Shown here one piece after another: positions 4,224-49,480 of a stretch of DNA of 51,873 nt. The position numbers and the translations under genes are program-made. Within the stretch, counting starts at the first letter, position 1, and each line of letters begins with the position of its first letter. This DNA is from Candidatus Brocadiaceae bacterium (GTDB lineage Bacteria > Planctomycetota > Brocadiia > SM23-32), in the NCBI GenBank assembly GCA_012728835.1, contig JAAYEJ010000024.1:1-51873 (forward strand), written 5' to 3'. The notes below the pieces were generated by a model. It was given only the letters and a program-made list of their open reading frames with translations. It made no database searches and had not been told where the DNA came from.

Positions 4224-5426
4224 TCAGGCCTTCTTTGTCCTCTTCCGCGCGCGCTTTGCGGGCGGGCTCTTGCGGGCCAGTTCGCGGAAGACGGCCTGCA
4301 TGGCCCTCTGCGTGACCTTCTCCGCACGCGGTCCGACGCGCGTGGTGCGGATCTCGTAGCCGCCCTCGGGGTAGACGGCGGCAGTGGGCAGGTAGCCGAT
4401 GTTGCCGTTGCTGTAGCCGAGGATGAGCGTGGCTTCCGCGGGAGACGCCTCGCGGCCGAAAAGCGCATACTCGACGAAGACCTCTGCGCTCAGCGCGACC
4501 AGCATGGCCTCGCCCACGCGCACGCCCTGCAGGCGCAGCCGGCGCGCCTCCTCGCCCTTCTCCTTCGGCGGCAGGTCGGCCGTGCTGTTGACGACGCGCA
4601 GGGGCAGGGGCTCCAGGTCGCGCACGTGGCTCAGCGCTTCCAGGACGGCGGAGCAGGCGTCGCGGGCGTGCTGTTCCATTTCGCCGAAGGTGCCGCGCAT
4701 CCCGGGGCGGTGCGTGCTGTAGGGGTTCTGGTTGGCGCCGCAGCCCTGCAGGAACACGTAGCGCGCGCCCGGCGTGCGGCATTCCAGGCGCTCGACCGCG
4801 CGGGCCATCCACTCGCCCGAGAGACTCAGGTTCCATTCGCCCAGCGTCGTCCCGTGCAGGGGCACGCTGAAGAGCACCACGTCGGGCCTGTGCTCGCGCG
4901 CGAACCGCCAGACGTCGACCTCGTGGAGCGTCGGGCCTTCGGGGTTCTCGCCGAGGATGATCTGGCCGTCCTCGCGCAGTTCGCGGCGGTTCACGCCGAT
5001 GTCGAGCGGCGCGTTGCCGACGCTGAAGCGCGCCGGGGAGGCGTCGGCGAGGGCCACGCGCAGGGCGCGGACGCTCTGCCGGACCATCTCGGCGCGGTAG
5101 GCCTCCTGCATCTCGTCGGGCTCGTGACGGCCGACGGCCGGCCCGGCGTGCGTGTGGCTGGTGTTCAGCAGCACGCGGTCAGGTTCAAGGCCCGTGGCCT
5201 CCCGGATGGCGGCCTTGAACGCGTCGGCATGGTCGAGGCTGAGCAGGCAGACGTCGTAGGTGAGCAGCGCGACGCGCTCGTTGCCGGCCTCGATCACGAC
5301 GGCGTTGACGAACAGGTCGTCGTGCACGTCGTTGGCGCCCTCGGTGCGCGACGCGTAGCCGGCCATCCGGATGCCCAGCGGCGGCGTGATGCATTCCCGT
5401 CCATGCCCGACCGATACGGTGTCCAT
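4224..5426 (-). CDS. Neutral/alkaline ceramidase-like hydrolase
   Basis: The 400-residue protein starts with VGHGRECITPPLGIRMAGYA, the N-terminal pattern of the neutral/alkaline non-lysosomal ceramidase superfamily. It carries LLNTSHTHAGPAVG, whose His residues bind the active-site zinc in that family, then FLQGCGANQNP, and LILGYSNGNIGYLPT near the C-terminus. It is shorter than true ceramidases, has no signal peptide and ends in a Lys/Arg-rich tail, so a ceramide substrate is doubtful. Many bacterial members of this length are annotated only as ceramidase-like. It lies 111 bp downstream of the lasso B1 gene but has its own promoter candidate, so I do not count it in the lasso locus. A paralogue lies at 49481-50773. 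Confidence 0.75.
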   Translation of the reverse strand: MDTVSVGHGRECITPPLGIRMAGYASRTEGANDVHDDLFVNAVVIEAGNERVALLTYDVCLLSLDHADAFKAAIREATGLEPDRVLLNTSHTHAGPAVGRHEPDEMQEAYRAEMVRQSVRALRVALADASPARFSVGNAPLDIGVNRRELREDGQIILGENPEGPTLHEVDVWRFAREHRPDVVLFSVPLHGTTLGEWNLSLSGEWMARAVERLECRTPGARYVFLQGCGANQNPYSTHRPGMRGTFGEMEQHARDACSAVLEALSHVRDLEPLPLRVVNSTADLPPKEKGEEARRLRLQGVRVGEAMLVALSAEVFVEYALFGREASPAEATLILGYSNGNIGYLPTAAVYPEGGYEIRTTRVGPRAEKVTQRAMQAVFRELARKSPPAKRARKRTKKA

Positions 5427-5537: not shown

Positions 5538-5834
5538 TCAGGAGAGTTCGGCCAGACCCTGCTCGACCAGCCGGGCAATCAGGTCGCGCATGTCGGCCCG
5601 CAGCGTCTCCGGCTCCACGTCGTACTCGTCGAGCAGGGCCTCGTAGGCGCTCTGAATCGAGTCGGATTCCATGAGCACCTGCCACATGCGGGCGCCGACC
5701 TCGTCCAGACCGTAGTAGGTCTCGTTGTCGAGGTTCAGCAGGACGGCTTCGCCGTCGAGGACGTTGATCAGCACGTTCTCCGCCGCCGACACGCGCTGCG
5801 AGAAGGGCACGTCTGCCATGGCCGGTTTCTCCAT
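5538..5834 (-). CDS. Lasso peptide B1 protein (PqqD-like RiPP recognition element)
   Basis: The 98-residue protein has the PqqD/RRE pattern: VPFSQRVSAAENVLINVLDG, then EAVLLNLDNETYYGLDEVGA, RMWQVLMES and a helical C-terminus with ARLVEQGLAEL. In lasso systems B1 binds the leader of the precursor and presents it to the B2 protease and C cyclase. It is the last gene of the locus, 50 bp after the nucleotidyltransferase gene. I took the ATG at 5834 (GAGAG just upstream). A second ATG at 5819, preceded by GGAG, would give a 93-residue product starting MADVPFSQ and is equally possible. The family call is firm and the exact start is not. Confidence 0.88.
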   Translation of the reverse strand: MEKPAMADVPFSQRVSAAENVLINVLDGEAVLLNLDNETYYGLDEVGARMWQVLMESDSIQSAYEALLDEYDVEPETLRADMRDLIARLVEQGLAELS

Positions 5835-5884
5835 GCTCTCTGAGTCCGATGCCGTGTCTCCCGGCGGCCCGGAGCCCCGGACGG

Positions 5885-7108
5885 TCACCGCCTTTGCGCC
5901 GTCCTGTGCCCGGGCCGCACCAGCGCAGCCAGCAGCCGCCCGACGGGAGCCACGGCATGCTTCCGTATCATGCGCCAGGGACGCACGCCATAGTAGAGGA
6001 ACGAGAGCCCGTGCGGCAACCGGCAGTGCGACCAGTCGGCCACCGTCGGGAACGCGGTGGCCTGCCAGCAATGGCCGATGCCGTCCCGCAGGCGTTCGCG
6101 CAAGCGCAGGGCGTAACGGAGGGAGTCCGCCGGGATCTTCCCGCGCTTCTCGCCGGCCAGGAAGGACTCCGCCATCCGCTCCGCCAGCCGCACCGCACGG
6201 GAGTCCGCGTTCATCGCGTCCTGCACGTGTGCGGGCACGGGCGCCTGCAGCAGGCGCCGGGCCAGCAGAAGGCCCAGGTGCAGTGCGCGCAGGGCGTGCG
6301 CGGCGGCCGCGCGAGCCGTGATCTCATCCCAGTGCAGGCAGGGGGTCGTGCGCAACAGCTCCGCCACGTCGCTCAGCCAGCCCAGACAGCTCCAGCGGTG
6401 TTTGCCCCCGTGCATGCACAGCAGCACGACCATGTCCTCGGGGCAGAACGTCGGCACCTGCCGCCCCAGCAGGGGCACGGCGCGGAGCCGCCGCCGGAGC
6501 GCCTCGCGGTCGATGCGGGCCGGGAAGGTCTTCCCCAGGAGGCCCGTGTGCAGCTCCACCGTCAGGGCGCCGTCGCCCTCGCCGCGCACCATCGGGAGCT
6601 GCCGCGCCCGCCGCACCTGGGCCCTCTCCTGAGCCGGCGTGAGGTCGAACGCGCAGCGGTAGCCTTGCCCGCGGAGCAGCGCGCGTGCGCGGGCGAAGTC
6701 CGGCGGGTCGATCAGGATGTCCAGATCGCCGAACTGCCGCAGCGCGATGTTGCCGTACGCCAGGGCGGCCAGCGTCGGGCCCTTGAAGGGCACGGCGGGG
6801 ATTCGGTGCTCGTCCAGGAGGTCCAGCAGGCGGAGCAGTTCGGCGGTCAGGCGCAGGCTGTGCGCTGCGTTGGCCCGGCAGTCCGCCGCCATCCGCTCCA
6901 GGGCGGCGGCCGGCACGGCGTCCGGGCAGACGCCGCTCAGGGTCCTGTGCAGCAGGGGCACGAGCCCGTGGTCCTGCGCCGTGCCGCGCAGCCGGTCCCA
7001 ATCGAGCACCTGCGCGGCCAGAGCGGCGATGTGCGGGCGCGCGTCGGCCTCGACGACCGTGCGGGCGCACGCCGCAAGCAGCTCCATCTCGGGCTTCGCG
7101 CACGTCAT
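5885..7108 (-). CDS. Nucleotidyltransferase of the lasso locus
   Basis: The 407-residue protein belongs to the NTP_transf_5-like family often found in lasso and other RiPP clusters. The diagnostic stretch is IPAVPFKGPTLAALAYGNI followed by LRQFGDLDILIDP, whose DxD pair would bind metal and nucleotide. A helical C-terminal half contains the pattern CMHGGKHRWSCLGWLSDVAEL, typical of the family. In the Bacillus pseudomycoidin pathway a related protein further decorates a phosphorylated tail, so a role after the kinase is likely here; the added group is unknown. The start at 7108 has GGGGAG upstream and lies 16 bp after the ABC gene. Another in-frame ATG seven codons later is possible. Confidence 0.85.
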   Translation of the reverse strand: MTCAKPEMELLAACARTVVEADARPHIAALAAQVLDWDRLRGTAQDHGLVPLLHRTLSGVCPDAVPAAALERMAADCRANAAHSLRLTAELLRLLDLLDEHRIPAVPFKGPTLAALAYGNIALRQFGDLDILIDPPDFARARALLRGQGYRCAFDLTPAQERAQVRRARQLPMVRGEGDGALTVELHTGLLGKTFPARIDREALRRRLRAVPLLGRQVPTFCPEDMVVLLCMHGGKHRWSCLGWLSDVAELLRTTPCLHWDEITARAAAAHALRALHLGLLLARRLLQAPVPAHVQDAMNADSRAVRLAERMAESFLAGEKRGKIPADSLRYALRLRERLRDGIGHCWQATAFPTVADWSHCRLPHGLSFLYYGVRPWRMIRKHAVAPVGRLLAALVRPGHRTAQRR

Positions 7109-7124
7109 CACGCAGCGCTCCCCA

Positions 7125-8981
7125 TCACGGGTGTTCGCCCTGAACGACGAGTTGGCCGCGCTCCATCTGCGCATGCCAGGACTGTGCATACGGCCCCGCC
7201 CGCTCGACGAGTTCCGCATGGCTGCCCGATTCCACGATCCGGCCCTCCTGCATGACGTGGATCACGTCGGCGTGCATCGCCGTCGTGAACCTGTGCGTGA
7301 TCAGCACGGCCGTGCGGCCCTCGGCGAGCGTCCGGAACCGCTGCAGCCAGTCGCCCTCGGCCCACGAGTCCATGGCGCTGGTGGGCTCGTCCAGCAGGAT
7401 GATGGGCGCGCGGCGCAGGAACGCCCGGGCCAGGGCGACCCGCTGCCACTCGCCGACGCTGAGTTCCGCGCCGCCGGCGAACCACTTGCCCAGCAGGGTG
7501 TCGTAGCCCCGCGGAAGGCGGGAGATCGGCTCGTCTGCGCCGGCCGCCCCGGCGGCCGCTTCGATCTCGGACGCGCCCGGCGCGGCCGGCAGGTCGCCCA
7601 GGGCGATGTTGTCGGCGGCCGTGACGCTGTACTGGACGGGCTGCTGGAACAGGACGGTCACCAGGCGGCGGTACTGCGCGACCGGCAGGTCCCGCAGGTC
7701 CACGCCGTCGATCTCGATGCGCCCCCGGTCAGGATCGTAGAGCCGGCACAGCAGCTTGATCAGCGTGCTCTTGCCCGCGCCGTTGGGGCCGACGATCGCC
7801 ACGATCCGTCCGGCGGGGAGATGCACGTCGAAGTCGCTGAGCGCAGCGTTCCCGCTGCCGGGGTACCGGAACGAGACGCCGCGGAACCGGATGCCGTCGC
7901 GGAGTTCGGCGGGCACCGGCCGGGGGGCCGCCGGGCTGACCACGCGGGGCGCGAGGTCCAGAAACTCGAACAGGTTGCCGAGGAACAGGCAGTTGTAGTA
8001 GATCTGCCCGATGTGCTCGGTGAAGCTGCGCATGGCCGCCTGCCCGCGGCTGAAGACGGCGTAGAACAGCGCCAGGTCGCCCAGTGTGCCGCGGCCGTGC
8101 AGCACGCGCCAGACCATCCAGAGCAGGGCGGCGCCGGTCACCAGCAGCCCCAGCGCGGCGGCCCCGGCCTCGCTGAGGGCCTGCCGACGCGAGAGCGCCA
8201 CCCGCTCATCGCGCAGCCGCTGCCGCAGCACTCGGTGTAGTGCCCGGAAGTGGTCTCCCAGCGCGAAGAGGCGCAGTTCGGCGGCGTTCTCCTTGGACGT
8301 CAGAACCCAGTCGTAGTACCACGTGCGCCGCTCGTTCTCCGTGTTGCGCAGCCGCCACTGGTGCTCCCGCAGGGCGAAGGCCAGCATGACGTAGAACGCC
8401 GGCATTGCGGCGGTCAGCAGCGCTACGGGAAGCCACCATCCGTACGGGACCAGCACCGCCGCCATGGCCAGCAGCGTGACGCCGTTCTGCAGCAGGCTGC
8501 CCGTGTTCTCCAGCAGGGCGACGGACCGGTAGCCGGCCTGGTCCCGGGCGCGATGCAGGTGATCGAAGAACTCGGGCGACTCGTAGAACGCCAGGTCGGC
8601 GGCGACCGACTGCTCGTGGATCAGGCCGCTGATGTGGTCCCGGAGGAGTTCCGACTGCACGGTGCGCACCAGGCCGGCGGCGACGCGCAGCAGTTCGTGC
8701 GCCAGCACGAGCGCCGCCACCAGGGCCGCCAGGACCAGCACCGGCCGCATGCGCTTCCAGTCGCCGCCCGCCAGCGCGACCTCCTGAAGTCCGTTGATCA
8801 GCGAACGGGCCAGGTAGACCGTGGCCGCCGGCAGGACGCCCTGCACCAGCAGCAGAACGACCCAGACCAGCGTCCATCGGCGCGTGGCATCCCAGACAAG
8901 GCTCAGCGTGTCCGGCATGTGCCGGATCTGTGCCAGGGCCTTGCGGAGGTTGGTGCCGAAGATACCGAGTGCGGATTGCAT
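7125..8981 (-). CDS. Lasso peptide exporter (ABC transporter, D protein)
   Basis: The 618-residue protein fuses a six-helix membrane domain (about residues 35-320) to one ATPase domain. The ATPase has Walker A GPNGAGKST at 398-406, a Q-loop in LFQQPVQYSV, signature LSVGEWQ at 507-513, Walker B IILLDE at 527-532 and an ITHR switch. The signature is the LS-G-E variant seen in bacterial peptide exporters rather than LSGGQ. There is no N-terminal C39 protease domain, as expected when B2 removes the leader. As a homodimer it would export the mature lasso peptide and give self-immunity. It lies 85 bp after the kinase gene and 16 bp before the nucleotidyltransferase gene. Confidence 0.92.
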   Translation of the reverse strand: MQSALGIFGTNLRKALAQIRHMPDTLSLVWDATRRWTLVWVVLLLVQGVLPAATVYLARSLINGLQEVALAGGDWKRMRPVLVLAALVAALVLAHELLRVAAGLVRTVQSELLRDHISGLIHEQSVAADLAFYESPEFFDHLHRARDQAGYRSVALLENTGSLLQNGVTLLAMAAVLVPYGWWLPVALLTAAMPAFYVMLAFALREHQWRLRNTENERRTWYYDWVLTSKENAAELRLFALGDHFRALHRVLRQRLRDERVALSRRQALSEAGAAALGLLVTGAALLWMVWRVLHGRGTLGDLALFYAVFSRGQAAMRSFTEHIGQIYYNCLFLGNLFEFLDLAPRVVSPAAPRPVPAELRDGIRFRGVSFRYPGSGNAALSDFDVHLPAGRIVAIVGPNGAGKSTLIKLLCRLYDPDRGRIEIDGVDLRDLPVAQYRRLVTVLFQQPVQYSVTAADNIALGDLPAAPGASEIEAAAGAAGADEPISRLPRGYDTLLGKWFAGGAELSVGEWQRVALARAFLRRAPIILLDEPTSAMDSWAEGDWLQRFRTLAEGRTAVLITHRFTTAMHADVIHVMQEGRIVESGSHAELVERAGPYAQSWHAQMERGQLVVQGEHP

Positions 8982-9066
8982 GGTCTGATGTCACCACGGC
9001 CGGCCGCGCATCTGTCGGGGCGCGCGGACGGCGTTGTCGGGCCTCCTCAGGCCCTGCACGGCGATG

Positions 9067-10083
9067 CTACGCGCACTCCGACTCGACGGGTGCGGCGGCC
9101 GAGTCGGGTTCCGTGCCCGGCGTTCGGGAGGTCTGCGGCGGTCCGACGTGGGCCAGGATCGCCGTGCGAACGTCCTGGAGGAGCGAGTAGTGCCGCGGGT
9201 AGGACAGGCGGAAGAGCGGCACCATGCGGCTCCAGCGGACGATCCGCTCGAACTCCCGGCGGAGCAGGTCCCGATCGTCCACGAGCAGATGGAACGTGCC
9301 CTTCATCAGTTCCATGGCCGTATCGCGCAGGGACACCGGCGCGATCGTGATCCCGTCGGCGTCGGCCGTCTGCCCCGGAGGTGCCAGCAGGTAGGCGCCG
9401 CGCAGCCGGACGGGGCCTTCGTGCCAGGTCATGCCCGTGTCGGCAGGCGAGAGCCGCCTCTTCCCCGTGTAGTGGGCGACCTGCGGCAGCGCCGTGTCCG
9501 CTCCGAACAGCGTCTCCACACTGTCCCGCCAGAGGCGCAGGCTGGGGTAGGTGGCCACGACCGAGAGCGCCCCGCCGTCTTCGCTGACGATGATCGAGTC
9601 GTCCGAGAGCAGGGGAGCGCCGTCGAGGCCGAAGCTGGACACGAGGGTGGACTTGCCCCGGCCGGTCTCGCCCAGGAAGGCCACCGCCTCGCCGCCGATG
9701 AGCACCGCCCCCGCGTGCACGACAACCCGGCCGCGGCGCGAGAGCGCAAGGGGCAGCACTTGGTCCAGGAGCAGGTGGCAGAGCGTCTGGCGCGGCAGGC
9801 GGGGTTCCGGACGGCAACTGAGGCACCGGCCGTCGGGGTCCAGCACGAAGTCGGCCATGCCGTAGAATCGCACCAGGTGCCCCTGCGGGACGACGCCCAC
9901 CGAATACCAGGCGCTCCCATCCGGCAGCTCCGCGTGCCGCACCCACCGGTGGACGTGCGGGCTGGCCGTCTCGGGAGGAAGCAGCGGAACGGGAGGCAAG
10001 GGACCCTCGCCCGTCACCCGCGGAAGCACCAGATGGGGGCCGCTTCCGCCGAACATCTCATCGAACCGAGACGGTTGGGTCAT
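9067..10083 (-). CDS. HPr-kinase-like lasso peptide kinase
   Basis: The 338-residue protein has HAGAV at 123-127, a P-loop GETGRGKST at 138-146 and LLSDDS around 158-163. This is the order seen in the C-terminal catalytic domain of HPr kinase and in the kinases of the paeninodin-type lasso clusters. Those enzymes phosphorylate the side chain of the C-terminal Ser of the precursor. The precursor encoded next to it does end in Ser, which supports this role. It lacks the N-terminal domain of true HPr kinase/phosphorylase and instead has about 100 residues with a Cys pair (CLSCRPEP). The frame stays open upstream, but that part shows no family similarity, so I chose the ATG at 10083. Confidence 0.88.
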   Translation of the reverse strand: MTQPSRFDEMFGGSGPHLVLPRVTGEGPLPPVPLLPPETASPHVHRWVRHAELPDGSAWYSVGVVPQGHLVRFYGMADFVLDPDGRCLSCRPEPRLPRQTLCHLLLDQVLPLALSRRGRVVVHAGAVLIGGEAVAFLGETGRGKSTLVSSFGLDGAPLLSDDSIIVSEDGGALSVVATYPSLRLWRDSVETLFGADTALPQVAHYTGKRRLSPADTGMTWHEGPVRLRGAYLLAPPGQTADADGITIAPVSLRDTAMELMKGTFHLLVDDRDLLRREFERIVRWSRMVPLFRLSYPRHYSLLQDVRTAILAHVGPPQTSRTPGTEPDSAAAPVESECA

Positions 10084-10720
10084 CCTTGGGACACCTGCCA
10101 GGGTTATGCGGTTGTCGTCCTCCGCCCGTGTCGGACGGAGTGGCCGCCATCGCTGTCTGCAGACGGTCCGGATGCGGAAAGAACGTGGACGGTGCGATGC
10201 CAACGATGTCGGACCTGCGTTGCGACCTGCACTCGCGGCGACTGCCCTCAACGCGGTCCCTGGGCGGCAGTGGGCGGCGTCCGGCCGATGCCGCCCACTC
10301 CCATGGCAGCGAGCGACTCCGACCGACAGGCCGAGGAGGCGAAAGGGCTCTCGGACGATCCCGTGCCGGCCTGCGCGCGTCCGGCATCCTGCCCGGTCAG
10401 TTGCACAAACGGACCCACACACGTCGGACAACGGTGTGCAGGCACTCGCCCGGGTCCGGTCCGCCCACGTTCCGCGGCCGGCCGCGACCGTCGGCACTTC
10501 TCACTGCGACAATCCGCAACCGGCTGCACCACACACCCGGCGCGGCAGATCATCACCCTCGGTCATCCCCGTCCGGCGGTTCGGGCGCGGTGCGGGAGAG
10601 GCCGGGCATCCCATGCTATCGCGGACACAATGTCCCGCGTTCTCTCCTAACCGTCAGGCGCCGCCCGCCATCACACTCCGGCGAACCGGGACAGCGCCCC
10701 GGCCGCCCATCGAGCGCCTG
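10084..10720. other. 637-bp stretch without a recognisable gene
   Basis: Between the lasso precursor and the kinase gene I find no ORF that looks coding in any frame, no second precursor with the YxxP...G leader motif, and no strong promoter on the minus strand. A short imperfect hairpin at 10621-10638 (minus strand GGACA-TTG-TGTCC core) lies about 80 bp past the precursor stop without a T-run. It could slow but would not clearly stop transcription. Confidence 0.5.
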
Positions 10721-10885
10721 TCACGAACGGTGACCGGGGTCCTTCCCGTGAGAATGCGGAGCCGAGTGCTCCACCATGCTTGAGCCTCCGCCCTTGGTCA
10801 GTTGCGCGACCGTCCCGTATGTGCTCATACACGGGGCGGAGTACCGTCTCTTTGCTGACAGAAAGCGTGTGGTGTCCTTCTTCAT
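10721..10885 (-). CDS. Lasso peptide precursor (A peptide)
   Basis: The 54-residue peptide begins MKKDTTRFLSAKRR and then carries the lasso leader motif Y15-x2-P18-x-M20-x2-Y23-G24-x-V26-x2-L29-T30-K31. Thr30 sits at position -2 of the expected cut, so the core starts at Gly32. Core residues 1-8 are GGGSSMVE. Glu8 is the only acidic residue at positions 7-9, so an 8-residue Gly1-Glu8 macrolactam is predicted. The tail is HSAPHSHGKDPGHRS: four His, no aromatic residue, and a C-terminal Ser suited to the adjacent kinase. The ATG at 10885 has GGAGAGG four bases upstream. The open frame extends further upstream, but the family pattern starts here. The gene lies between C and the kinase gene and has its own strong promoter. 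Confidence 0.92.
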   Translation of the reverse strand: MKKDTTRFLSAKRRYSAPCMSTYGTVAQLTKGGGSSMVEHSAPHSHGKDPGHRS

Positions 10886-10967
10886 GGATCCTCTCCGGAG
10901 CGGCCCGGATCCTGCAACACGGTTGCCACACTCGTCGCTCGTTGCAGCGCAACCGTAGAGAGGATCC
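10886..10967 (-). promoter_or_regulatory. Structured mRNA leader able to bury the precursor's ribosome-binding site
   Basis: Perfect 10-bp arms at 10958-10967 and 10886-10895 (transcript GGATCCTCTC and GAGAGGATCC) would pair the Shine-Dalgarno sequence directly before the ATG. Inside lie an 8-bp pair (10949-10956 with 10919-10926) and a 7-bp pair (10941-10947 with 10912-10918) that cross each other, giving a pseudoknot or alternative folds. The same bases also form two local hairpins, GTTGC-N3-GCAAC (10941-10953) and GCAAC-N3-GTTGC (10914-10926). The symmetric GTTGC/GCAAC boxes could instead be a protein-binding operator. Confidence 0.6.
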
Positions 10968-11054
10968 GCCCGCGTGGCGTTCTGCACGTCTCTCCAGTGT
11001 GCCGGTCACCGCAGATTGGACGGACGGCAACCGATGCACCCGCACCGGTCGCGA

Positions 11055-11083
11055 ATTATACCGGCAGGCGCGCGCCTTGTCAA
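11055..11083 (-). promoter_or_regulatory. Perfect sigma-70 consensus promoter of the lasso precursor
   Basis: The minus strand reads TTGACA (11083-11078), a 17-bp spacer, and TATAAT (11060-11055). All twelve bases match consensus in an otherwise GC-rich region. Transcription should start near 11048, giving a leader of about 160 nt before the precursor ATG. It lies just past the stop of the C gene and would let the precursor be made in excess over the enzymes. Confidence 0.85.
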
Positions 11084-11139
11084 TAGGGAAAATGCGCAGT
11101 CTGGACCCATCCTTCTCCGGAGTCTCGAGACCGCCGTCC

Positions 11140-13107
11140 TCACGGCCTGGCGGTTGTCTGCTGCGGCTCCCGTGCCGCCCGGCCGTGGCCCCGGCGCCAG
11201 ACGGCCAGTGCGACGGCCTGCCAGATCCTGCCGCCGTCTTCCACCGCCCCGGTGGCCGCATGGCGGCGACGGGCCTCGTCCAGCGTGTTCAGACACACCA
11301 GGTCAGCCAGGTCCGTCCTCGGGCCGTCCAGCGCATCCGCGATGAGGCCGGCGGCCAGCGCGAACCACCGGGAGAGGAACGCGGCCCCGAGGTGTTCCCA
11401 GCCCTTGCGCCAGGTGACCTCGGGCGGGAGCAGGTGCTCGACGGCCCGGCGGAGGGCCACCTTCGTCCAGCCGCCGCCGAGGCGCTGCGTGCGCGGCAGG
11501 CGGAAGCAGAACTCGACGAGCCGCTTGTCCAGGAACGGGCGGCGCGGTTCGATCGAGAAGGCCGCCGCCATCCGGTCGTAGCGCTCGAACGCCACGGGCA
11601 GGTTCGGGGAGTCGAGCCGCCCTACGTCCAGTTCGCGCAGGCGGCGCGGGAGCCCCCGCCCCGGCCGGCCGCGTCCGTAGTGGGCCTCCACGCGATCGGC
11701 CAGCCGGATGCGGTCCGCAAACGCGGGATCGACAAGCGAGTTCCGAATGAGGGCGGCGGCCCGCCGCCGTCTGCGCATGTCCCTCAGCCGACCGCTCATC
11801 GGGATCCTGTGGGTGGGCAGCAGGGGCCGAAGGCCGTCGTGGAACAGGAAGTGCCACGGAGACTTCTTCCAGCGGCGGTAGAAGTCCGCCAGGCCCCGGG
11901 CGTCGGCCGCGGCCTCCCCCCACCGGCCCTCCCGCAACAGATAGGCCAGGTACACCCCGGCATGCGAGGCCACCACGTCGCCGTCCACGCCGTCCAGCAG
12001 GACCCGGATCCCCTCCCGCCGCGCGGCGGCGTACATGGGCAGCGGCACGCTGATCATGTCGTTGTCGAACAGGTCCTCGGTGTGGCGGACGATCCGCTCG
12101 AGGTCCGGCAGGAAGGCCGGCAGGTCCGCCGGGCGGACGGTGAAAGGCCGCACGCGGCCCTGCGCGAGCACGGCGCGGATGGCCCGGCTCTCCGGGCAGC
12201 CGGTCTCGTCGTCCGCCACCGCCGAGAACGTGCGCAGCGGGCCGTCGGCGGCATTCGCCAGGAGGTCCCGCGCCACGGCCACGATGGCCGACGAGTCCAT
12301 GCCCCCGCTGAGCATCGCGCCGACGGCGTCGGGGGACCGAAGCCGGCACCGGACCGCCTCGGTGAAGACCTCCAGGAACGCTTCGGCATGCTCCGCGTCG
12401 GACCCGAGGCGGAGGTCCTCGGCGGACGGGTCGAGCGCCCAGTAGCGGCGCAGCGTCGCGCCCTGTCCGGAGACCGTCAGGGAGTGGGCCGGCGGCAGGC
12501 GGAAGACGTGCTCGTAGAAGGTGCACGTCTTGTCGATCGGCTCCAGGTCCGTCAGCAGGTAGTCGGCGATCCGGGCCTCGTTGATCCGCCAGGGCACCGC
12601 CGGCAGGGCCATGACGCCCTTGGTCTCGGAGGCGAAGGCGAACAGCGAGTCGGACAGGTGGTAGCAGAACGGCTTGATGCCGAAGTGATCCCGGGCGCAG
12701 AAGAGGGTCTGTCGGCGGGCGTCCCAGACGGCGAAGGCGAAGTCGCCCAGCAGGCGGGCAGGGCAGCCCTGGCCCCAGCGCTCGTAGGCGCGCAGGATCA
12801 GCTCGCTGTCGGTCACCGTGTCGGCCGGCCGGCCGGCGGGGCCCAGGGCCGCGATCAGTTCCTCCCGGTTGTCGATGCGGGCGTCGGCCGTGATCGTCAG
12901 GCCGCGGACGGGGTCGGTTGCCGGCAGCGTCTCGTGGAGCGATTCGGGCGTGGTGCGCAGCATGCAGTGTCCCAGGCCGACCGGCCCCTGCGCCCACGTC
13001 CCTGATCCGTCGGGGCCGCGGTGGAGAAGGGCGCTGACCATCCGCTCGACCTCGCGGGGCGCGGCGGGGCGACCATCGAGACGACAGAATCCGGCAATCC
13101 CGCTCAC
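11140..13107 (-). CDS. Lasso cyclase (asparagine synthetase-like C protein)
   Basis: The 655-residue protein has an N-terminal glutaminase-like domain (about 1-190) and an ATP-pyrophosphatase synthetase domain with the PPi loop SGGMDSS at 247-253. In lasso pathways this protein adenylates the ring Asp or Glu and joins it to the new core N-terminus. It starts with GTG, giving MSGIAGFCRLDG. Residue 2 is Ser, so the Cys2 nucleophile of true glutamine-dependent asparagine synthetases is missing, as expected for an enzyme that uses the peptide amine rather than ammonia. Its GTG overlaps the TGA of B2 (GTGA), so the two are translationally coupled. Without that context it would be read as an ordinary AsnB. 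Confidence 0.9.
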   Translation of the reverse strand: MSGIAGFCRLDGRPAAPREVERMVSALLHRGPDGSGTWAQGPVGLGHCMLRTTPESLHETLPATDPVRGLTITADARIDNREELIAALGPAGRPADTVTDSELILRAYERWGQGCPARLLGDFAFAVWDARRQTLFCARDHFGIKPFCYHLSDSLFAFASETKGVMALPAVPWRINEARIADYLLTDLEPIDKTCTFYEHVFRLPPAHSLTVSGQGATLRRYWALDPSAEDLRLGSDAEHAEAFLEVFTEAVRCRLRSPDAVGAMLSGGMDSSAIVAVARDLLANAADGPLRTFSAVADDETGCPESRAIRAVLAQGRVRPFTVRPADLPAFLPDLERIVRHTEDLFDNDMISVPLPMYAAARREGIRVLLDGVDGDVVASHAGVYLAYLLREGRWGEAAADARGLADFYRRWKKSPWHFLFHDGLRPLLPTHRIPMSGRLRDMRRRRRAAALIRNSLVDPAFADRIRLADRVEAHYGRGRPGRGLPRRLRELDVGRLDSPNLPVAFERYDRMAAAFSIEPRRPFLDKRLVEFCFRLPRTQRLGGGWTKVALRRAVEHLLPPEVTWRKGWEHLGAAFLSRWFALAAGLIADALDGPRTDLADLVCLNTLDEARRRHAATGAVEDGGRIWQAVALAVWRRGHGRAAREPQQTTARP

Positions 13108-13607
13108 GGCGGCCCCTTTCGGACGGGCGGGTCCCCGGGCGGGCCGTCGGGCCGTGCCGCCGTCCGGGCCTGTCGGAACCGGCCGAACCGGCGGCGGACG
13201 CCTTCGGGCTGGTTGACGGGCTGGCCCATGAGTTCGACCCAGGCGTGGGCCTCGAGTCGGCCCGCGTGCTTGTATGCGCCGACGCAGAGTTCCGTCTCGA
13301 TGCCGCGGCGCCGCAGCAGATGCTGCAGGACGATGGACTGCAGGAGGCACGCGGCGCGGAACGGACACCAGCGCGCGGCGACGGCCACCATGCGTGCCGC
13401 CTCGACCGCGCTCACCATGGCGCCGGCCGCGCTCGCTGCGTGTCTTGTGTCGGGCGGCGTTCCCGTGGCCGCCCGTCCGAGCACTTTCAGGCGCCGGAGC
13501 CCCAGTACCCGCAGGGCGACTGCCGTCAGCGGCAGCAGGACGAGTGCGCGGAGCAGCAGGCTGCGCTGGCGGCGGCTCAGCGCGCGGTACTGGCGCCACT
13601 TGCTCAT
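13104..13607 (-). CDS. Lasso peptide B2 protein (transglutaminase-like leader peptidase)
   Basis: The 167-residue protein starts MSKWRQYRALSRRQRSLLLR, the hydrophobic-basic N-terminus common in B2 proteins. The protease motif is CLLQSIVLQHLLRRRGI with Cys87, then ELCVGAYK and HAWVELMGQPVN with His121. The third triad position, usually Asp about eleven residues after His, reads Asn132 in the PVN motif. B2 cuts the leader after the Thr-x pair so that the C protein can close the ring. The ATG at 13607 was chosen because the family pattern starts there; the frame is open further upstream. A promoter candidate lies 47-75 bp upstream. Confidence 0.9.
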   Translation of the reverse strand: MSKWRQYRALSRRQRSLLLRALVLLPLTAVALRVLGLRRLKVLGRAATGTPPDTRHAASAAGAMVSAVEAARMVAVAARWCPFRAACLLQSIVLQHLLRRRGIETELCVGAYKHAGRLEAHAWVELMGQPVNQPEGVRRRFGRFRQARTAARPDGPPGDPPVRKGPP

Positions 13608-15473: not shown

Positions 15474-15557
15474 AACGAACACGGACGAACACGGACGAAC
15501 ACGGATGGACACGGACGAACACGGACGGACACGGACGGACACGGACGAACACGGACC
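15474..15557 (+). repeat. Tandem 10-bp repeat array, unit ACGGACGRAC
   Basis: About eight head-to-tail copies of a 10-base unit (ACGGACGAAC, ACGGACGGAC or ACGGATGGAC) run without spacers. The unit length and lack of unique spacers exclude a CRISPR array. It lies just upstream of the four-helix-bundle gene. Confidence 0.9.
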
Positions 15558-15578
15558 GGCAACACGCCCCCCCGGCCC

Positions 15579-15627
15579 GTGCCGCACCCGGCCCGTGCCG
15601 CACCCGGCCCGTGCCGCACCCGGCCTG
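15579..15627 (+). repeat. Three direct copies of a 16-bp GC-rich repeat
   Basis: CCGGCCCGTGCCGCAC is repeated three times in tandem (about 15579-15626). It occupies the space between the two oppositely oriented 10-bp arrays. Confidence 0.85.
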
Positions 15628-15665
15628 CCCAGCCCCGGCGCAGGCGGGCTTGCCCGCCGGAGGCG

Positions 15666-15712
15666 GGTCCGTGTCCGTCCGTGTTCGTCCGTGTTCGTCC
15701 GTGTGTCCGTGC
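15666..15712 (-). repeat. Inverted array of the same 10-bp repeat
   Basis: The sequence reads GTCCGTGTCCGTCCGTGTTC and further copies of the 10-base unit as its reverse complement, about four to five copies. It can pair with the array at 15474-15557 to make a long imperfect stem. The rest of 15713-15948 holds no recognisable gene. Confidence 0.85.
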
Positions 15713-37736: not shown

Positions 37737-37749
37737 GGAGGCCGACGTG

Positions 37750-40425
37750 ATGAGGCTCTGGAGGCGGACCGGGGCTGCGGCCCTGTGCGTGATGCTGTGT
37801 GCGTTCGGCCTCGGAGCCGCTGCGCCGGATGGCGAGACGGCCGCGCGCGTGCCGATCCTGGATACCTACGGCCCGTGGCGGATGCACTGCACGCTGGCGC
37901 CGCCCCTGCTGGCCTCCGGCGAGGCCATCGGGCTCCGGCACGCCTGGCTGAACTACAGGACGCCCGACCCCGACCCTGCCTGGCCGTCCCGGGACTTCGA
38001 CGACCGCTTCTGGAACCGCGGCCCGCTGAAGCTGTCCTGCAAGACGGCGCTCGCCGCGCGCATCTGCCTGCGCGGCAAGTTCACCGTGACCGACCCCGCC
38101 GCGGTCGCCGACCTGCGCCTGACCGTCGGCTACAAGGGCGGCCTGATCGTCTACCTCAACGGCGAGGAGATCCACAGGGCGCACGTCGAGAAGGGCGCGG
38201 CCGTCGCCGACGGGCTGGCCGGCGAGGAGCGCTTGCTCGAAGACCACACGGTCCCGCTCGACCGGCTCGTCGAGGGCGTCAACGTGCTGGCCCTGGAGGC
38301 CGTGCGCTCGGTCTACCCGCAGGTGGAAGAGGAGGACAACTACGAGCCGAACGCCTGCGAGTTCCTGCACGCGCGGCTCTCGGCGGCCTCGGCCGGCGGC
38401 CTGGTGCCGAACGTCGTGCGTCCGGCGGGGCTGCAGGTCTGGAACGCCGACGTGCTGGCGGCCGACGTGGACCTGGACTTCGGCGACACCGCCGAGCCGC
38501 TCAGGCCGGTCACGATCGTCGGCGCCCGCAACGGGCGCTTCTCCGGCAAGGTCGTCGTCGGATCCACCGAGCCGATCCGCGCGCTGGCGGCCCGCCCCGA
38601 GCCGCTCGTCGGCGGCGGCGGCGCCATCCCCGCTGCGGCGGTCCGCATCCGTTACGGCGTCCGCGGGGGTGGTTCGGGCCCCAACCTGTCGACGCGCCTG
38701 GTCCCGCACGCGCCGTATCCCCAATACGCCAACCGTCTGAGCGCCCTGGCCGAGGAGCCCCTGGAGGAGTTCGAGGTGCTGGTGCCGGGCCGGCGCGGGC
38801 GGCAGTACTGGCGCTTCGAGTCGTTCCCCGGGCAGCCCGAGACGGTCAACGGCGCGGTCGTGCCCGTCTGGATCACCGTGCAGGTGCCGGCCGACGCCGG
38901 GGCCGGCGACTACGCGGGCGCCGTGCGCATCGAGGTGGACGGCCAGGAGCCCGTGCGCGTGCCCGTGGAGCTGCACGTGGCGGACTACACGCTGCCCGAC
39001 ACGCAGGACTACCGCACGTGGCTCGACGTCATCCAGAGCCCCGACACGCTGGCCCTGGAGTATGACGTGCCGCTCTGGTCCGACGATCACTTCGACCTGA
39101 TCGCGCGGTCCTTCCGCCTGATCGGCCAGACGGGCGCGCGCACGCTCTACGTGCCGCTGATCGCCCACACCAACCTGGGCAACGAGCAGTCCATGGTCCG
39201 CTGGATCCCGGACGGCGACGCCTATGCCTACGACTTCTCGGTCATGGAACGCTACCTCGACACGGCCCGCGAGCACATGGGCACGCCGAAGCTGATCGTG
39301 TTCGTCGTCTGGGACCACTACATGATCCCGGAGTCCGACGCCTCCGGCGACGAGGCCTCGCAGGCACGGGGACGCCAGCGGCAGATGGCCCAGCACGTGC
39401 AGAAGGAGGGTGGGGACCTCGGCCAGGGGCCGATGGTCACCCGCCTGGACCCGGCCACGGGCGAGACGGAACTGCTCCTGCTTCCGTCGCACACGGATCC
39501 GGAGGCGAGCCGGCCGCTCTGGGCGCCGCTGTTCGAGGGCGTGCGCGCGCGTCTGGCGGAGCGCGGGCTGGAGGAGACGATGATGCTGGGCATCATGTCC
39601 GACGCCTGGCCGACCAAGGAGGACTGCGAGTTCTTCCGCGAGGTCACCGACGACGCGCCGTGGGTCATCCAGTCGCACGAGGGCTACCTGCGCGACGGGC
39701 GACGCCTGCACGACGTGGCCCGGCTGGGATACCAGGTGGTCGTCTGGCCCGTGCATTTCTCCGACGACGGTACGCACCGCGGCGAGCGCGACATCGGGAA
39801 GATCACCAGCCTCTGCGGCTGGCGCCGGGATGACCTGGTGGCCCGGTTCAACCGGACCAACGCCCTGGAGACGTGGATGGAAGCCGGCTGCCGGTTCGCC
39901 ATCGAGCGCAACATCACCGGCGACCACCGCGGCCAGGGCCGCGTTGGGGGCGATTACTGGCCCGTGCTGAAGAACGAGCGGGGCGACCGCGTCGGCCGGG
40001 TGCACGAACGCTACCCGGAGAGCAACTGGCGGAACCTCGTGATCCGGGCCTCGCTGCTGGCGCCGGGGCCGACCGGCCCGGTCGCGACCAGCCGCATGGA
40101 GGCGCTCCGCGAGGGCGTGCAGGAGTGCGAGGCGCGCATCGCCATCGAACGCGGCCTCTACGACGACGCCCTGCGCGCGAGGCTGCCGGCCGACCTGGTC
40201 GAGCGCTGCGAGCGTTACCTGCACGACAGGCACATGATGATGTGGCTGAGCGGGAGCGGTCTGCAGTTCTACCATCAGTACCCGGACGCCTCCTGGCGGG
40301 CCAAGTGGCCGCACGGCTGGGGGGGCGGGTTCACCGGTCACAACTGGTTCCTGGGCTCCGGCTACCAGGAGCGCAACCGGGAGTTGTTCGCCCTGGCAGG
40401 GGAGGTGACGGCGGCGCTCCGGTGA
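37750..40425 (+). CDS. Secreted DUF4091-type glycoside-hydrolase-like protein, copy 1
   Basis: The 891-residue protein has a signal peptide (RTGAAALCVMLCAFGLGAAA). A beta-sandwich follows with FDDRFWNRGPLKLSCKTALA and LNGEEIHRAH, like sugar-binding jelly-roll domains. Then come LHVADYTLPDTQDYRTWLDV and a barrel-like middle (WSDDHFDLIARSFRLIGQTG, LIVFVVWDHY), and a DUF4091-like C-terminal part (LLAPGPTGPVATSRMEALRE then GVQECEARIAI). DUF4091 proteins are thought to be glycosidases, but the activity is mostly unproven. The ATG at 37750 follows GAGGAGG; a GTG directly before it is an alternative. A paralogue follows directly. Confidence 0.72.
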   Translation: MRLWRRTGAAALCVMLCAFGLGAAAPDGETAARVPILDTYGPWRMHCTLAPPLLASGEAIGLRHAWLNYRTPDPDPAWPSRDFDDRFWNRGPLKLSCKTALAARICLRGKFTVTDPAAVADLRLTVGYKGGLIVYLNGEEIHRAHVEKGAAVADGLAGEERLLEDHTVPLDRLVEGVNVLALEAVRSVYPQVEEEDNYEPNACEFLHARLSAASAGGLVPNVVRPAGLQVWNADVLAADVDLDFGDTAEPLRPVTIVGARNGRFSGKVVVGSTEPIRALAARPEPLVGGGGAIPAAAVRIRYGVRGGGSGPNLSTRLVPHAPYPQYANRLSALAEEPLEEFEVLVPGRRGRQYWRFESFPGQPETVNGAVVPVWITVQVPADAGAGDYAGAVRIEVDGQEPVRVPVELHVADYTLPDTQDYRTWLDVIQSPDTLALEYDVPLWSDDHFDLIARSFRLIGQTGARTLYVPLIAHTNLGNEQSMVRWIPDGDAYAYDFSVMERYLDTAREHMGTPKLIVFVVWDHYMIPESDASGDEASQARGRQRQMAQHVQKEGGDLGQGPMVTRLDPATGETELLLLPSHTDPEASRPLWAPLFEGVRARLAERGLEETMMLGIMSDAWPTKEDCEFFREVTDDAPWVIQSHEGYLRDGRRLHDVARLGYQVVVWPVHFSDDGTHRGERDIGKITSLCGWRRDDLVARFNRTNALETWMEAGCRFAIERNITGDHRGQGRVGGDYWPVLKNERGDRVGRVHERYPESNWRNLVIRASLLAPGPTGPVATSRMEALREGVQECEARIAIERGLYDDALRARLPADLVERCERYLHDRHMMMWLSGSGLQFYHQYPDASWRAKWPHGWGGGFTGHNWFLGSGYQERNRELFALAGEVTAALR

Positions 40426-40479
40426 GCGCGGCCGTCCGCCATGCGGCAGGGCGATGAGACAATCGTGCGGAGGAGTGGG

Positions 40480-43149
40480 ATGAGGGCGTTCGGCGCGATG
40501 TGGGTGGCGGTCGGGCTTCTCGGTGCCGTCTGTGCGGCCGCCGAGTCCCCGGCGCAGGAGGGACGTGTGCCGGTGCTGGATACGTACGGGAACTGGCACA
40601 TGCGTTCGATGCTGGCGCCTCCGGTGCGGGCCTCCGGCGAGGAGGGGGCCCTGCCGCGGGTCTGGATGGCCCACAAGACGCCGCCCCCGCCCGAGGGCTG
40701 GGAGGCGCCGGACTTCGACGACCGCTTCTGGAACCGCGGCTCGCTCGTGCGCGTCCCCAAGACGGGCATCCTGGCGCGGGCGTGCATTCGCGGGAAGTTC
40801 GCCGTGACCGACGCGTCCGCCGTGGAGGCACTGTGGCTTTCGGCCCGCTACCGCGGCGGCATCGTCGTGTACCTGAACGGCCAGGAGGTGCATCGTGCGC
40901 ACAGGGAGCCGGGGCGGGAGCCGGCGGACGGCCCCGGAGGCGAGGAGCGGGAGATCGTGGACCTGGCGCTCCCGACCGACCGGCTGCGCAACGGCACGAA
41001 CGTGCTGGCGCTGGACGTCGTGCGGGCGCCGTACCCGGAGTCCGGCGGGCAGCCCGGCGAGTTCGTCTACGACATCAAGACCTGCGAGGTCCTGGAAGTG
41101 CGCCTTTCGGCGCCGAGCCGTGCGGGCCTGATCCCCAACGCCGTCCGCCCCGAAGGGCTGCAGGCGTGGAACTCGGACCCGCTGGCCGGCGACCACAGCC
41201 TGGACCAGGGCGACGCGGGCGTTCCCCTGCAACCGGTCACCATCATCGGCGCGCGCAACGGCCTCTTCTCCGGCAAGGTGGTGCTCGGCTCCACCCGGCC
41301 GATCCGGGGACTGAAGGTGGCCCCGGGGGCCATCTCCGGGCCCGGCGGCGCCGCCATCCCCGCCGACCACGTGGAGGTGCGCTACGGGGTGCCCTGGGGC
41401 GAGGAGCGCCTGGCCGACACCGGCCTCTACCACGGGCAGTGGCTGCGCGACAGCCCGTATCTCGACTACACCGTCGCGCTCGGGGCGCTGGCGGATGCGG
41501 CTCCGGACGAGGTCCCCGTGCTGCACGGGCAGCGGCAGGCATCCTTCTACACCTTTCCCCGCGGGCCGCAGGTCGTCAAGGCCGTCCCGGCCGCCGTCGT
41601 GCCCCTGTGGCTGCGCGTGCGTACGCCCGCCGACGCCGCCCCGGGCACCTACACCGGCTCGCTGCGCGTCCAGGCCGACGGCGAGGAGCCGATCGACGTG
41701 CCCCTCGAACTGCGCGTGGCGGATTACGTGCTTCCCACCACGCAGGACTACCGCACCTGGGTCGACATCATCCAGTGTCCCGACACCCTGGCGTTGGAGT
41801 ACGACATCCCGCTCTGGTCCGACAGGCACTTCGACATGATCGCCCGCTCCTTCCGGCTGATCGGCGAGACCGGCAGCCGCATCGTCTACATCCCCCTGAT
41901 CGCCCACACGAACCTCGGCAACGAGCAGTCGATGGTCCGGTGGATCAAGCGCGAGGACGGGGGGTATGACCATGATTTCTCGATCATGGAGCGTTACCTG
42001 GATGTCGCCCGCGAGACCATGGGCACGCCCAAGCTCATCGTCTTCGTCGTCTGGGACGTCTACATGATCCCGAAGGAGACGGACGGCAAGCGACGGACCC
42101 GCGAGGTGTGGCACACGGCGCACCTGGACAAGATCGGCGCCGAATACGGCCAGGGCCCGATGGTGACCGTCCTGGACCCCGCCACCGGCGAGACGGACGT
42201 GCTGAACCTGCCGCCCCACGAGGGCGACCCCGCGGACAAGGCGCTCTGGCAGCCGGTCGTCGACGGCGTGCGCGAGCGGCTGCGCGCGCGCGGCCTGGAG
42301 GACGCCATGATGTTCGGCCTGCACCACGACACCTGGGCCGGCAGGGATGACGTGGCATTGTTCAACGACCTCGCCCCGGACGTCCCATGGGCGATGCATT
42401 CGCACGAAGGCCATAAGGCGGACGCGAAGATGTACGGCATCGCGCAGGTCGCCTACCAGGCCTGCGTCTGGGCCGTCGCCTTCTCGGATGACGGCACGGA
42501 TCGCGGCGAACGCGACAAGGGCCGGATCACGAGCCGTATGGGCTGGAACCGTGAGCACCTGATCGCCCAGTTCGACCGCGTCACGCGCGACGACCACCCG
42601 AACACGCGCTGGCGCCACCTGGCCGAAACCTGCATCACGGGCTCCCAGAGGGGCCCCGGCCGGCTCGGGGCGGAATACTGGAAGGTCGTCCGCAACGCGC
42701 GCGGCGAGCGCGCGAGCACGTCGTTCGAACGCTATCCCGAGAGCAGTTGGCGGAACCTGTTCATCGCCTCGAGCCTGATCGTGCCGGGACCGGAGGGGCC
42801 GGCGGCCGGCCGCCGCCTGGAGGCCCTGCGCGAGGGCGTGCAGGAGTGCGAGGCGCGCATCACGATTGAACGCGCCCTGTACGATGCCGAACGGAGGGCC
42901 CGGCTCGGAGACGATCTCGCCCGGCGCTGTGAGGAGTACCTCCACGAGCGCCACATGATGCTCTGGCAGAGCCTCTGGAGCATGCAGTGCTATTACCGGT
43001 ATCCCGAGAAGCAGGAACGCTACGAAGGAGGCGGTTGGCGAACGATGCCCAACGTCTCCGGGCACAACTGGTTCCTGGGCTCCGGCTACCAGGAGCGCAA
43101 CCAGCAGCTTTTTGCTCTGGCCGGAGAGGTCGCGCGGGCGCTGCGATAG
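40480..43149 (+). CDS. Secreted DUF4091-type glycoside-hydrolase-like protein, copy 2
   Basis: The 889-residue protein is collinear with copy 1 over its whole length and shares long stretches: FDDRFWNRG, DTLALEYD..LWSD, LIAHTNLGNEQSMVRWI, MGTPKLIVFVVWD and FLGSGYQERN near the end. It has its own signal peptide (MRAFGAMWVAVGLLGAVCAA). Differences cluster in the binding-sandwich part and around IAQVAYQACVWAVAFSDDGT, so the two may prefer different sugars. The start follows GGAGGAG, 54 bp after copy 1. As with copy 1, a glycosidase role is likely but unproven. Confidence 0.72.
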   Translation: MRAFGAMWVAVGLLGAVCAAAESPAQEGRVPVLDTYGNWHMRSMLAPPVRASGEEGALPRVWMAHKTPPPPEGWEAPDFDDRFWNRGSLVRVPKTGILARACIRGKFAVTDASAVEALWLSARYRGGIVVYLNGQEVHRAHREPGREPADGPGGEEREIVDLALPTDRLRNGTNVLALDVVRAPYPESGGQPGEFVYDIKTCEVLEVRLSAPSRAGLIPNAVRPEGLQAWNSDPLAGDHSLDQGDAGVPLQPVTIIGARNGLFSGKVVLGSTRPIRGLKVAPGAISGPGGAAIPADHVEVRYGVPWGEERLADTGLYHGQWLRDSPYLDYTVALGALADAAPDEVPVLHGQRQASFYTFPRGPQVVKAVPAAVVPLWLRVRTPADAAPGTYTGSLRVQADGEEPIDVPLELRVADYVLPTTQDYRTWVDIIQCPDTLALEYDIPLWSDRHFDMIARSFRLIGETGSRIVYIPLIAHTNLGNEQSMVRWIKREDGGYDHDFSIMERYLDVARETMGTPKLIVFVVWDVYMIPKETDGKRRTREVWHTAHLDKIGAEYGQGPMVTVLDPATGETDVLNLPPHEGDPADKALWQPVVDGVRERLRARGLEDAMMFGLHHDTWAGRDDVALFNDLAPDVPWAMHSHEGHKADAKMYGIAQVAYQACVWAVAFSDDGTDRGERDKGRITSRMGWNREHLIAQFDRVTRDDHPNTRWRHLAETCITGSQRGPGRLGAEYWKVVRNARGERASTSFERYPESSWRNLFIASSLIVPGPEGPAAGRRLEALREGVQECEARITIERALYDAERRARLGDDLARRCEEYLHERHMMLWQSLWSMQCYYRYPEKQERYEGGGWRTMPNVSGHNWFLGSGYQERNQQLFALAGEVARALR

Positions 43150-49406: not shown

Positions 49407-49480
49407 GCGCCGGCGGAGGTACGCGAAGTGCCTCGCGGCGGTGGACGGGGCCGGCGGCCCCCATGCGAAGGAGAGTACCG

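What the first reader, a model, noticed from the sequence alone, without database searches (positions are those of the whole stretch)
5538..13607. Complete lasso-peptide biosynthetic locus with kinase and nucleotidyltransferase
Sequence shows, on one strand, B2 (Cys87/His121 protease), C (AsnB-like with SGGMDSS but no Cys2), a precursor with the lasso leader motif, an HPr-kinase-like protein, an ABC exporter, a nucleotidyltransferase and a PqqD-like B1. Each family is known from lasso clusters; all together with the precursor give high certainty. The order B2-C-A-K-D-N-B1, with the precursor in the middle and B1 last, differs from the common A-first arrangement. Lasso loci from the lineage suggested here are little studied.
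Basis: partly seen in the sequence, partly recalled or inferred. Interest (0 to 1): 0.95.

Follow-up and report, generated by a model that had tools for sequence, protein, structure and literature searches.

The report
Lasso-peptide gene cluster with tail kinase
This is a genuine, apparently complete set of genes for making a knotted (lasso) peptide whose tail is probably phosphorylated and possibly sugar-decorated; it is a new member of a well-known kind from a little-studied bacterial lineage, with only a slightly rearranged gene order.

Summary
All seven genes are present on the minus strand in the reported order: B2, C, A, K, D, N, B1. C and B2 exceed the curated lasso cut-offs of NCBIfam. 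In a 109-row tree, C falls inside a 20-row clade made only of lasso cyclases. B1 matches the solved lasso RRE protein TbiB1. The 54-aa precursor is the only match in 51.9 kb to the leader-plus-acceptor pattern (0.017 expected). Its predicted core, GGGSSMVEHSAPHSHGKDPGHRS, would close an 8-residue ring (Gly1-Glu8) and ends in Ser. The kinase keeps the published His-Lys-Asp-Asp residues. The cluster is therefore of the paeninodin/pseudomycoidin kind: C-terminal Ser phosphorylation, perhaps followed by modification by N. One added element: a perfect sigma-70 consensus promoter (12/12, 17-bp spacer) just upstream of the precursor. The arrangement is less unusual than claimed: of 30 related loci with a detected precursor, 15 have it between C and K. 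Only the terminal position of B1 was not seen elsewhere. Verdict: correct finding, new member of a known kind, modest interest.

The parts
13104..13607 (-). B2: lasso leader peptidase (transglutaminase-like cysteine protease; Cys87, His121)
   Evidence: NF033537 lasso_biosyn_B2 83.5 bits (cut-off 33), PF13471 72.8 bits (cut-off 26); catalytic residues read from the alignment
11140..13107 (-). C: lasso macrolactam synthetase (AsnB-like, Ser2 instead of Cys2, SGGMDSS); GTG start overlaps the B2 stop by 4 nt
   Evidence: NF033535 621 bits (cut-off 525); tree within an all-lasso clade; sequence of the junction
11055..11083 (-). Perfect sigma-70-type promoter TTGACA-17-TATAAT in front of the precursor
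   Evidence: 12 of 12 matches; 0.4 sites of at least 9/12 expected in 8.7 kb
10721..10885 (-). A: precursor, 54 aa; leader MKKDTTRFLSAKRRYSAPCMSTYGTVAQLTK, core GGGSSMVEHSAPHSHGKDPGHRS (predicted ring Gly1-Glu8, C-terminal Ser)
   Evidence: leader pattern unique in the window, 0.017 expected; NF033528 E 1.4e-4, below its cut-off; same position relative to C and K as precursors of many related loci
9067..10083 (-). K: HPr-kinase-like tail kinase, with His123, Lys144, Asp161 and Asp162
   Evidence: TIGR04352 E 1.7e-8; the four positions hold the same residue in 61/61, 61/63, 59/64 and 64/64 aligned kinases
7125..8981 (-). D: ABC exporter (membrane plus ATPase domains)
   Evidence: PF00005 106 bits; PF00664 E 5e-6, just below its cut-off; MsbA-type NCBIfam models
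5885..7108 (-). N: NTP_transf_5 nucleotidyltransferase-like protein
   Evidence: PF14907 206 bits, E 6.8e-61
5538..5819 (-). B1: PqqD-like RiPP recognition element
   Evidence: PF05402 E 1.1e-16; NF033536 lasso PqqD E 6.7e-15, below its cut-off; PDB 5v1u TbiB1 E 2.5e-12

Best explanation
A complete lasso-peptide cluster of the kinase type. B1 binds the leader of the precursor, in the YxxPxxxxxG...LT region. K phosphorylates the C-terminal Ser of the precursor. B2 cuts after Lys31 (Thr at -2, TK|GGG). C activates the Glu8 side chain with ATP and joins it to the amino group of Gly1 around the threaded tail. D exports the product. N further modifies the phosphorylated tail, possibly by hexosylation or nucleotidylation. 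A separate strong promoter would let the short precursor be made in excess of the enzymes. Gene content, family membership and motifs are shown here. Cleavage site, ring, threading, phosphorylation, N activity and promoter use are inferred.
For: Family models over curated cut-offs for B2, C, N and B1. C sits in an all-lasso clade. TbiB1 match. Single leader-motif precursor with acid at core position 8 and Ser at the C terminus. Kinase residues intact. The same gene set is found in relatives from many phyla. Kinase-type lasso clusters modify the C-terminal Ser through a His-Lys-Asp-Asp kinase, and PsmN is needed for hexoses on the phosphate (PMC9266682; PMC8498205).
Against: The precursor does not reach a curated lasso model. 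The leader has Cys-Met where Pro-x-Leu is usual. K is far below its family cut-off and has no PDB sequence hit. A 637-nt gap separates A from K. There is no experimental evidence, and the intact locus is known only from this genome.
Confidence: 0.93

Rival explanations
1. The enzymes form a lasso cluster but the 54-aa frame is not the true precursor; the real substrate lies elsewhere.
For: The precursor scores below the NF033528 cut-off. Its third-codon-position GC (0.72) is lower than that of its neighbours (0.88-0.93).
Against: It is the only leader-pattern match in six frames of the window, with 0.017 expected. It has an acid at position 8 and a C-terminal Ser, a Shine-Dalgarno-like GGAGAGG and a perfect promoter in front, and it lies where many relatives keep their precursors.
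Confidence: 0.04
2. The cluster is decaying or silent, with B1 moved away and the locus no longer making a peptide.
For: The B2 position that is Asp in the 'ND' subclass is Gln here. The A-K gap of 637 nt has no gene.
Against: All frames are intact with high third-position GC. That B2 position varies among relatives. The kinase residues are intact and the precursor promoter is perfect.
Confidence: 0.05
3. The AsnB-like gene is an ordinary asparagine synthetase or exopolysaccharide amidotransferase next to unrelated genes.
For: The generic asparagine synthase model also matches (TIGR01536, 271.6 bits against a cut-off of 267).
Against: The lasso-specific model scores 621 bits. Cys2 of the glutaminase is replaced by Ser. 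The tree separates it from the Cys2 enzymes of the same class. B2 overlaps it by 4 nt.
Confidence: 0.01

Closest known systems
Paeninodin cluster (Paenibacillus; PadeK)
   Same: Split B1 and B2, HPr-kinase-like K with His-Lys-Asp-Asp, precursor ending in Ser
   Different: Here the order is B2-C-A-K-D-N-B1, an N gene is present and the core sequence is unrelated; Bacillota C proteins lie in another part of the tree
Pseudomycoidin cluster (Bacillus pseudomycoides; PsmK, PsmN)
   Same: Kinase plus nucleotidyltransferase in one lasso cluster
   Different: Gene order, core sequence and host lineage; modification by N not tested; N was not compared directly with PsmN
B1-B2-C-A-K-(D)-(N) loci in Gemmatimonadota, Acidobacteriota, Chloroflexota, Rokuibacteriota and Cyanobacteriota (L003, L004, L005, L029, L057)
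   Same: Among the closest C proteins by tree, same kinds of genes, precursor after C in those where one was found
   Different: B1 stands before B2 where both were found, whereas here it is the last gene; these are unstudied draft-genome loci

Membership tests
Lasso-peptide biosynthetic cluster | Lasso-type macrolactam synthetase C | tested here: met
   NF033535 621 bits, cut-off 525; in an all-lasso clade of 20 rows, support 99
Lasso-peptide biosynthetic cluster | Leader peptidase B2 with catalytic Cys and His | tested here: met
   NF033537 83.5 bits, cut-off 33; Cys87 and His121 align with those of relatives
Lasso-peptide biosynthetic cluster | B1 / RiPP recognition element | tested here: met
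   PqqD Pfam over cut-off; TbiB1 5v1u E 2.5e-12; the lasso PqqD models are below their cut-offs
Lasso-peptide biosynthetic cluster | Precursor with YxxP...G...T(-2) leader and Asp/Glu at core position 7-9 | tested here: met
   One match in the window, 0.017 expected; T-K|G with Glu8; Cys-Met after the Pro where x-Leu is usual; below the NF033528 cut-off
Lasso-peptide biosynthetic cluster | Threaded macrolactam product | not testable with these tools
   Needs expression, mass spectrometry and NMR
Kinase-type (paeninodin-like) lasso cluster | HPr-kinase-like K with His-Lys-Asp-Asp | tested here: met
   TIGR04352 E 1.7e-8, below its cut-off; H123, K144, D161 and D162 present and conserved; equivalence to the published four residues is inferred from their motif order
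Kinase-type (paeninodin-like) lasso cluster | C-terminal Ser on the precursor | tested here: met
   Core ends ...GHRS
Pseudomycoidin-type cluster | Nucleotidyltransferase-like N gene together with K | tested here: met
   PF14907 E 6.8e-61
Pseudomycoidin-type cluster | Hexosylation of the phospho-Ser | not testable with these tools
   Needs mass spectrometry with and without N

The most novel reading that the evidence does not exclude
The precursor is transcribed as a separate unit from its own near-ideal promoter, inside an operon whose B1 has moved to the far end. The His-rich, charged 23-residue core (four His, C-terminal phospho-Ser, perhaps hexosylated) would then be a new metal-binding or signalling lasso peptide of this bacterial class.
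Probability: 0.12. Interest if true: 0.45.

Novelty: new member of a known kind. Interest (0 to 1): 0.22.

Why it matters
It extends kinase- and nucleotidyltransferase-bearing lasso clusters to a poorly studied bacterial class and gives an explicit predicted product (lasso core 2292.02 Da, phospho form 2371.99 Da) that can be tested by expression. The role of N in lasso biosynthesis is still unsettled in the literature (PMC9266682), and this is another gene set in which to test it. It does not change what is known about the family.

Tried and rejected
A possible second, decayed precursor in the A-K gap ('GPFVQLTGQDAGRAQ') was tested: its DNA similarity to A is reached by 27 of 300 shuffles, so it was rejected. 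The apparent loss of a third B2 catalytic Asp was rejected as an anomaly because the position varies among relatives. A tRNA-derived origin of the precursor frame was rejected: no tRNA and no Rfam family in the window. Naming the phylum failed: 16S was found but no collection on hand could identify it, and the PSD1 search was uninformative, since no control rang either. Several family scans failed on coordinates and were repeated; one search failed and was not repeated, as K, N and B2 had been scanned. The kinase had no PDB sequence match. No structure prediction was run, since sequence evidence already decided the family.

Full report
Observation. On the minus strand between 13607 and 5538 lie, in transcription order, B2, C, A, K, D, N and B1. 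Pfam and NCBIfam scans confirm B2, C, N and B1, and support K and D. C reaches 621 bits on the lasso cyclase model NF033535 (cut-off 525), and B2 reaches 83.5 on NF033537 (cut-off 33). B2 and C overlap by GTGA. C starts V(M)-S-G-I-A-G, so the glutaminase Cys2 is replaced by Ser. B1 matches the solved lasso RRE protein TbiB1 (5v1u, E 2.5e-12).

Precursor. The 54-aa frame at 10721-10885 reads MKKDTTRFLSAKRRYSAPCMSTYGTVAQLTK-GGGSSMVEHSAPHSHGKDPGHRS. The leader pattern with an acid at core position 7-9 occurs once in six frames of the window. Sixty first-order simulations give 0.017 per window. Thr at -2 puts the cut before GGG and the acceptor at Glu8. A Shine-Dalgarno-like GGAGAGG precedes the ATG. 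About 170 nt further up is a perfect TTGACA-17-TATAAT promoter, the best site in the region. The last residue is Ser, the residue phosphorylated in the known kinase-type lasso peptides (PMC9266682).

Kinase and N. K is a divergent HPr-kinase relative (TIGR04352 E 1.7e-8), but it holds His123, Lys144, Asp161 and Asp162, conserved in essentially all aligned relatives. These residues fit the published His-Lys-Asp-Asp motif of the paeninodin kinase family. N is a strong PF14907 member. In pseudomycoidin the K gene adds phosphate and the N gene is needed for hexoses, though whether N itself is the glycosyltransferase is unsettled.

Relatives. A scan of the species-representative genomes gave 80 loci with C relatives, the nearest about 48-50% identical. 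They come from Gemmatimonadota, Acidobacteriota, Chloroflexota, Pseudomonadota and others. Gene order was read with profiles built here and precursors with a leader pattern. B1-B2-C-(A)-K with D and/or N is frequent. In 15 of the 30 related loci with a detected precursor, the precursor lies between C and K. B1 is separated from B2 in L006 and L009, but none of the 80 loci has the exact order seen here. In a 109-row tree, window C lies in a 20-row all-lasso clade (SH-aLRT 99), apart from the Cys2 enzymes of the same class. The tree is the quick version, without bootstraps; 'lasso' rows were labelled by B1 or B2 within 7 kb, so a few rows may be mislabelled.

Distribution. Among 57 held relatives none has C over the NF033535 cut-off. 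One of them, G033, has a weaker C (locus L087) that falls among lasso rows in the tree with a K on the same contig. In 75 genomes of the class, 15 (the window's own included) have a B2 model match over the cut-off. Of those examined, G069 has K-B2-B1-N-D side by side with a precursor-like frame a few kb upstream (L123), while others have B2, with or without B1, and no C nearby in the stretches read. Lasso genes are thus sporadic in this class, and this cluster has no close copy among held genomes, which fits horizontal spread but does not prove it.

Conclusion. The cluster is a new member of the known kinase/nucleotidyltransferase lasso type. The claim of unusual order reduces to B1 being last. 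Product, modification and promoter use are predictions.

Noticed in passing
window 11055-11083 (-): Perfect 12/12 sigma-70 consensus promoter in a GC-rich region, upstream of the precursor; not mentioned in the finding.
   Followed up: partly
window 10084-10720: 637-nt stretch between precursor and kinase without a convincing gene; contains an imperfect hairpin near 10630 (by eye) but no terminator-like site in the scan.
   Followed up: partly
window 15475-15704: Short tandem repeats (10-bp ACGAACACGG and GTCCGTGTTC units, 16-bp unit) near a 23S_rRNA_IVP-like frame (PF05635, 31.6 bits, just below cut-off).
   Followed up: no
window 4224-5426 (-) and 49463-50773 (+): Two proteins that look alike by eye (shared NTSHTHAGP/NASHTHGGP and GYxNG motifs); the first matches the neutral/alkaline ceramidase N-terminus family (PF04734) and lies directly downstream of the lasso cluster.
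   Followed up: no
window 37747-43149 (+): Two large adjacent proteins (892 and 902 aa) that look like a tandem duplication by eye.
   Followed up: no
L123 (G069 contig 398), 8000-13000 and about 15990: A different lasso-type cluster (K-B2-B1-N-D) in another genome of the same class, with a precursor-like frame RPYKTPTLKKLGSLEQLTQGIPNIPVPDDFETSV.
   Followed up: partly
L012, L013, L016, L019, L046: Kinase-bearing lasso loci whose detected precursors do not end in Ser (ending Cys, Val or Leu), so the kinase target there may differ.
   Followed up: no
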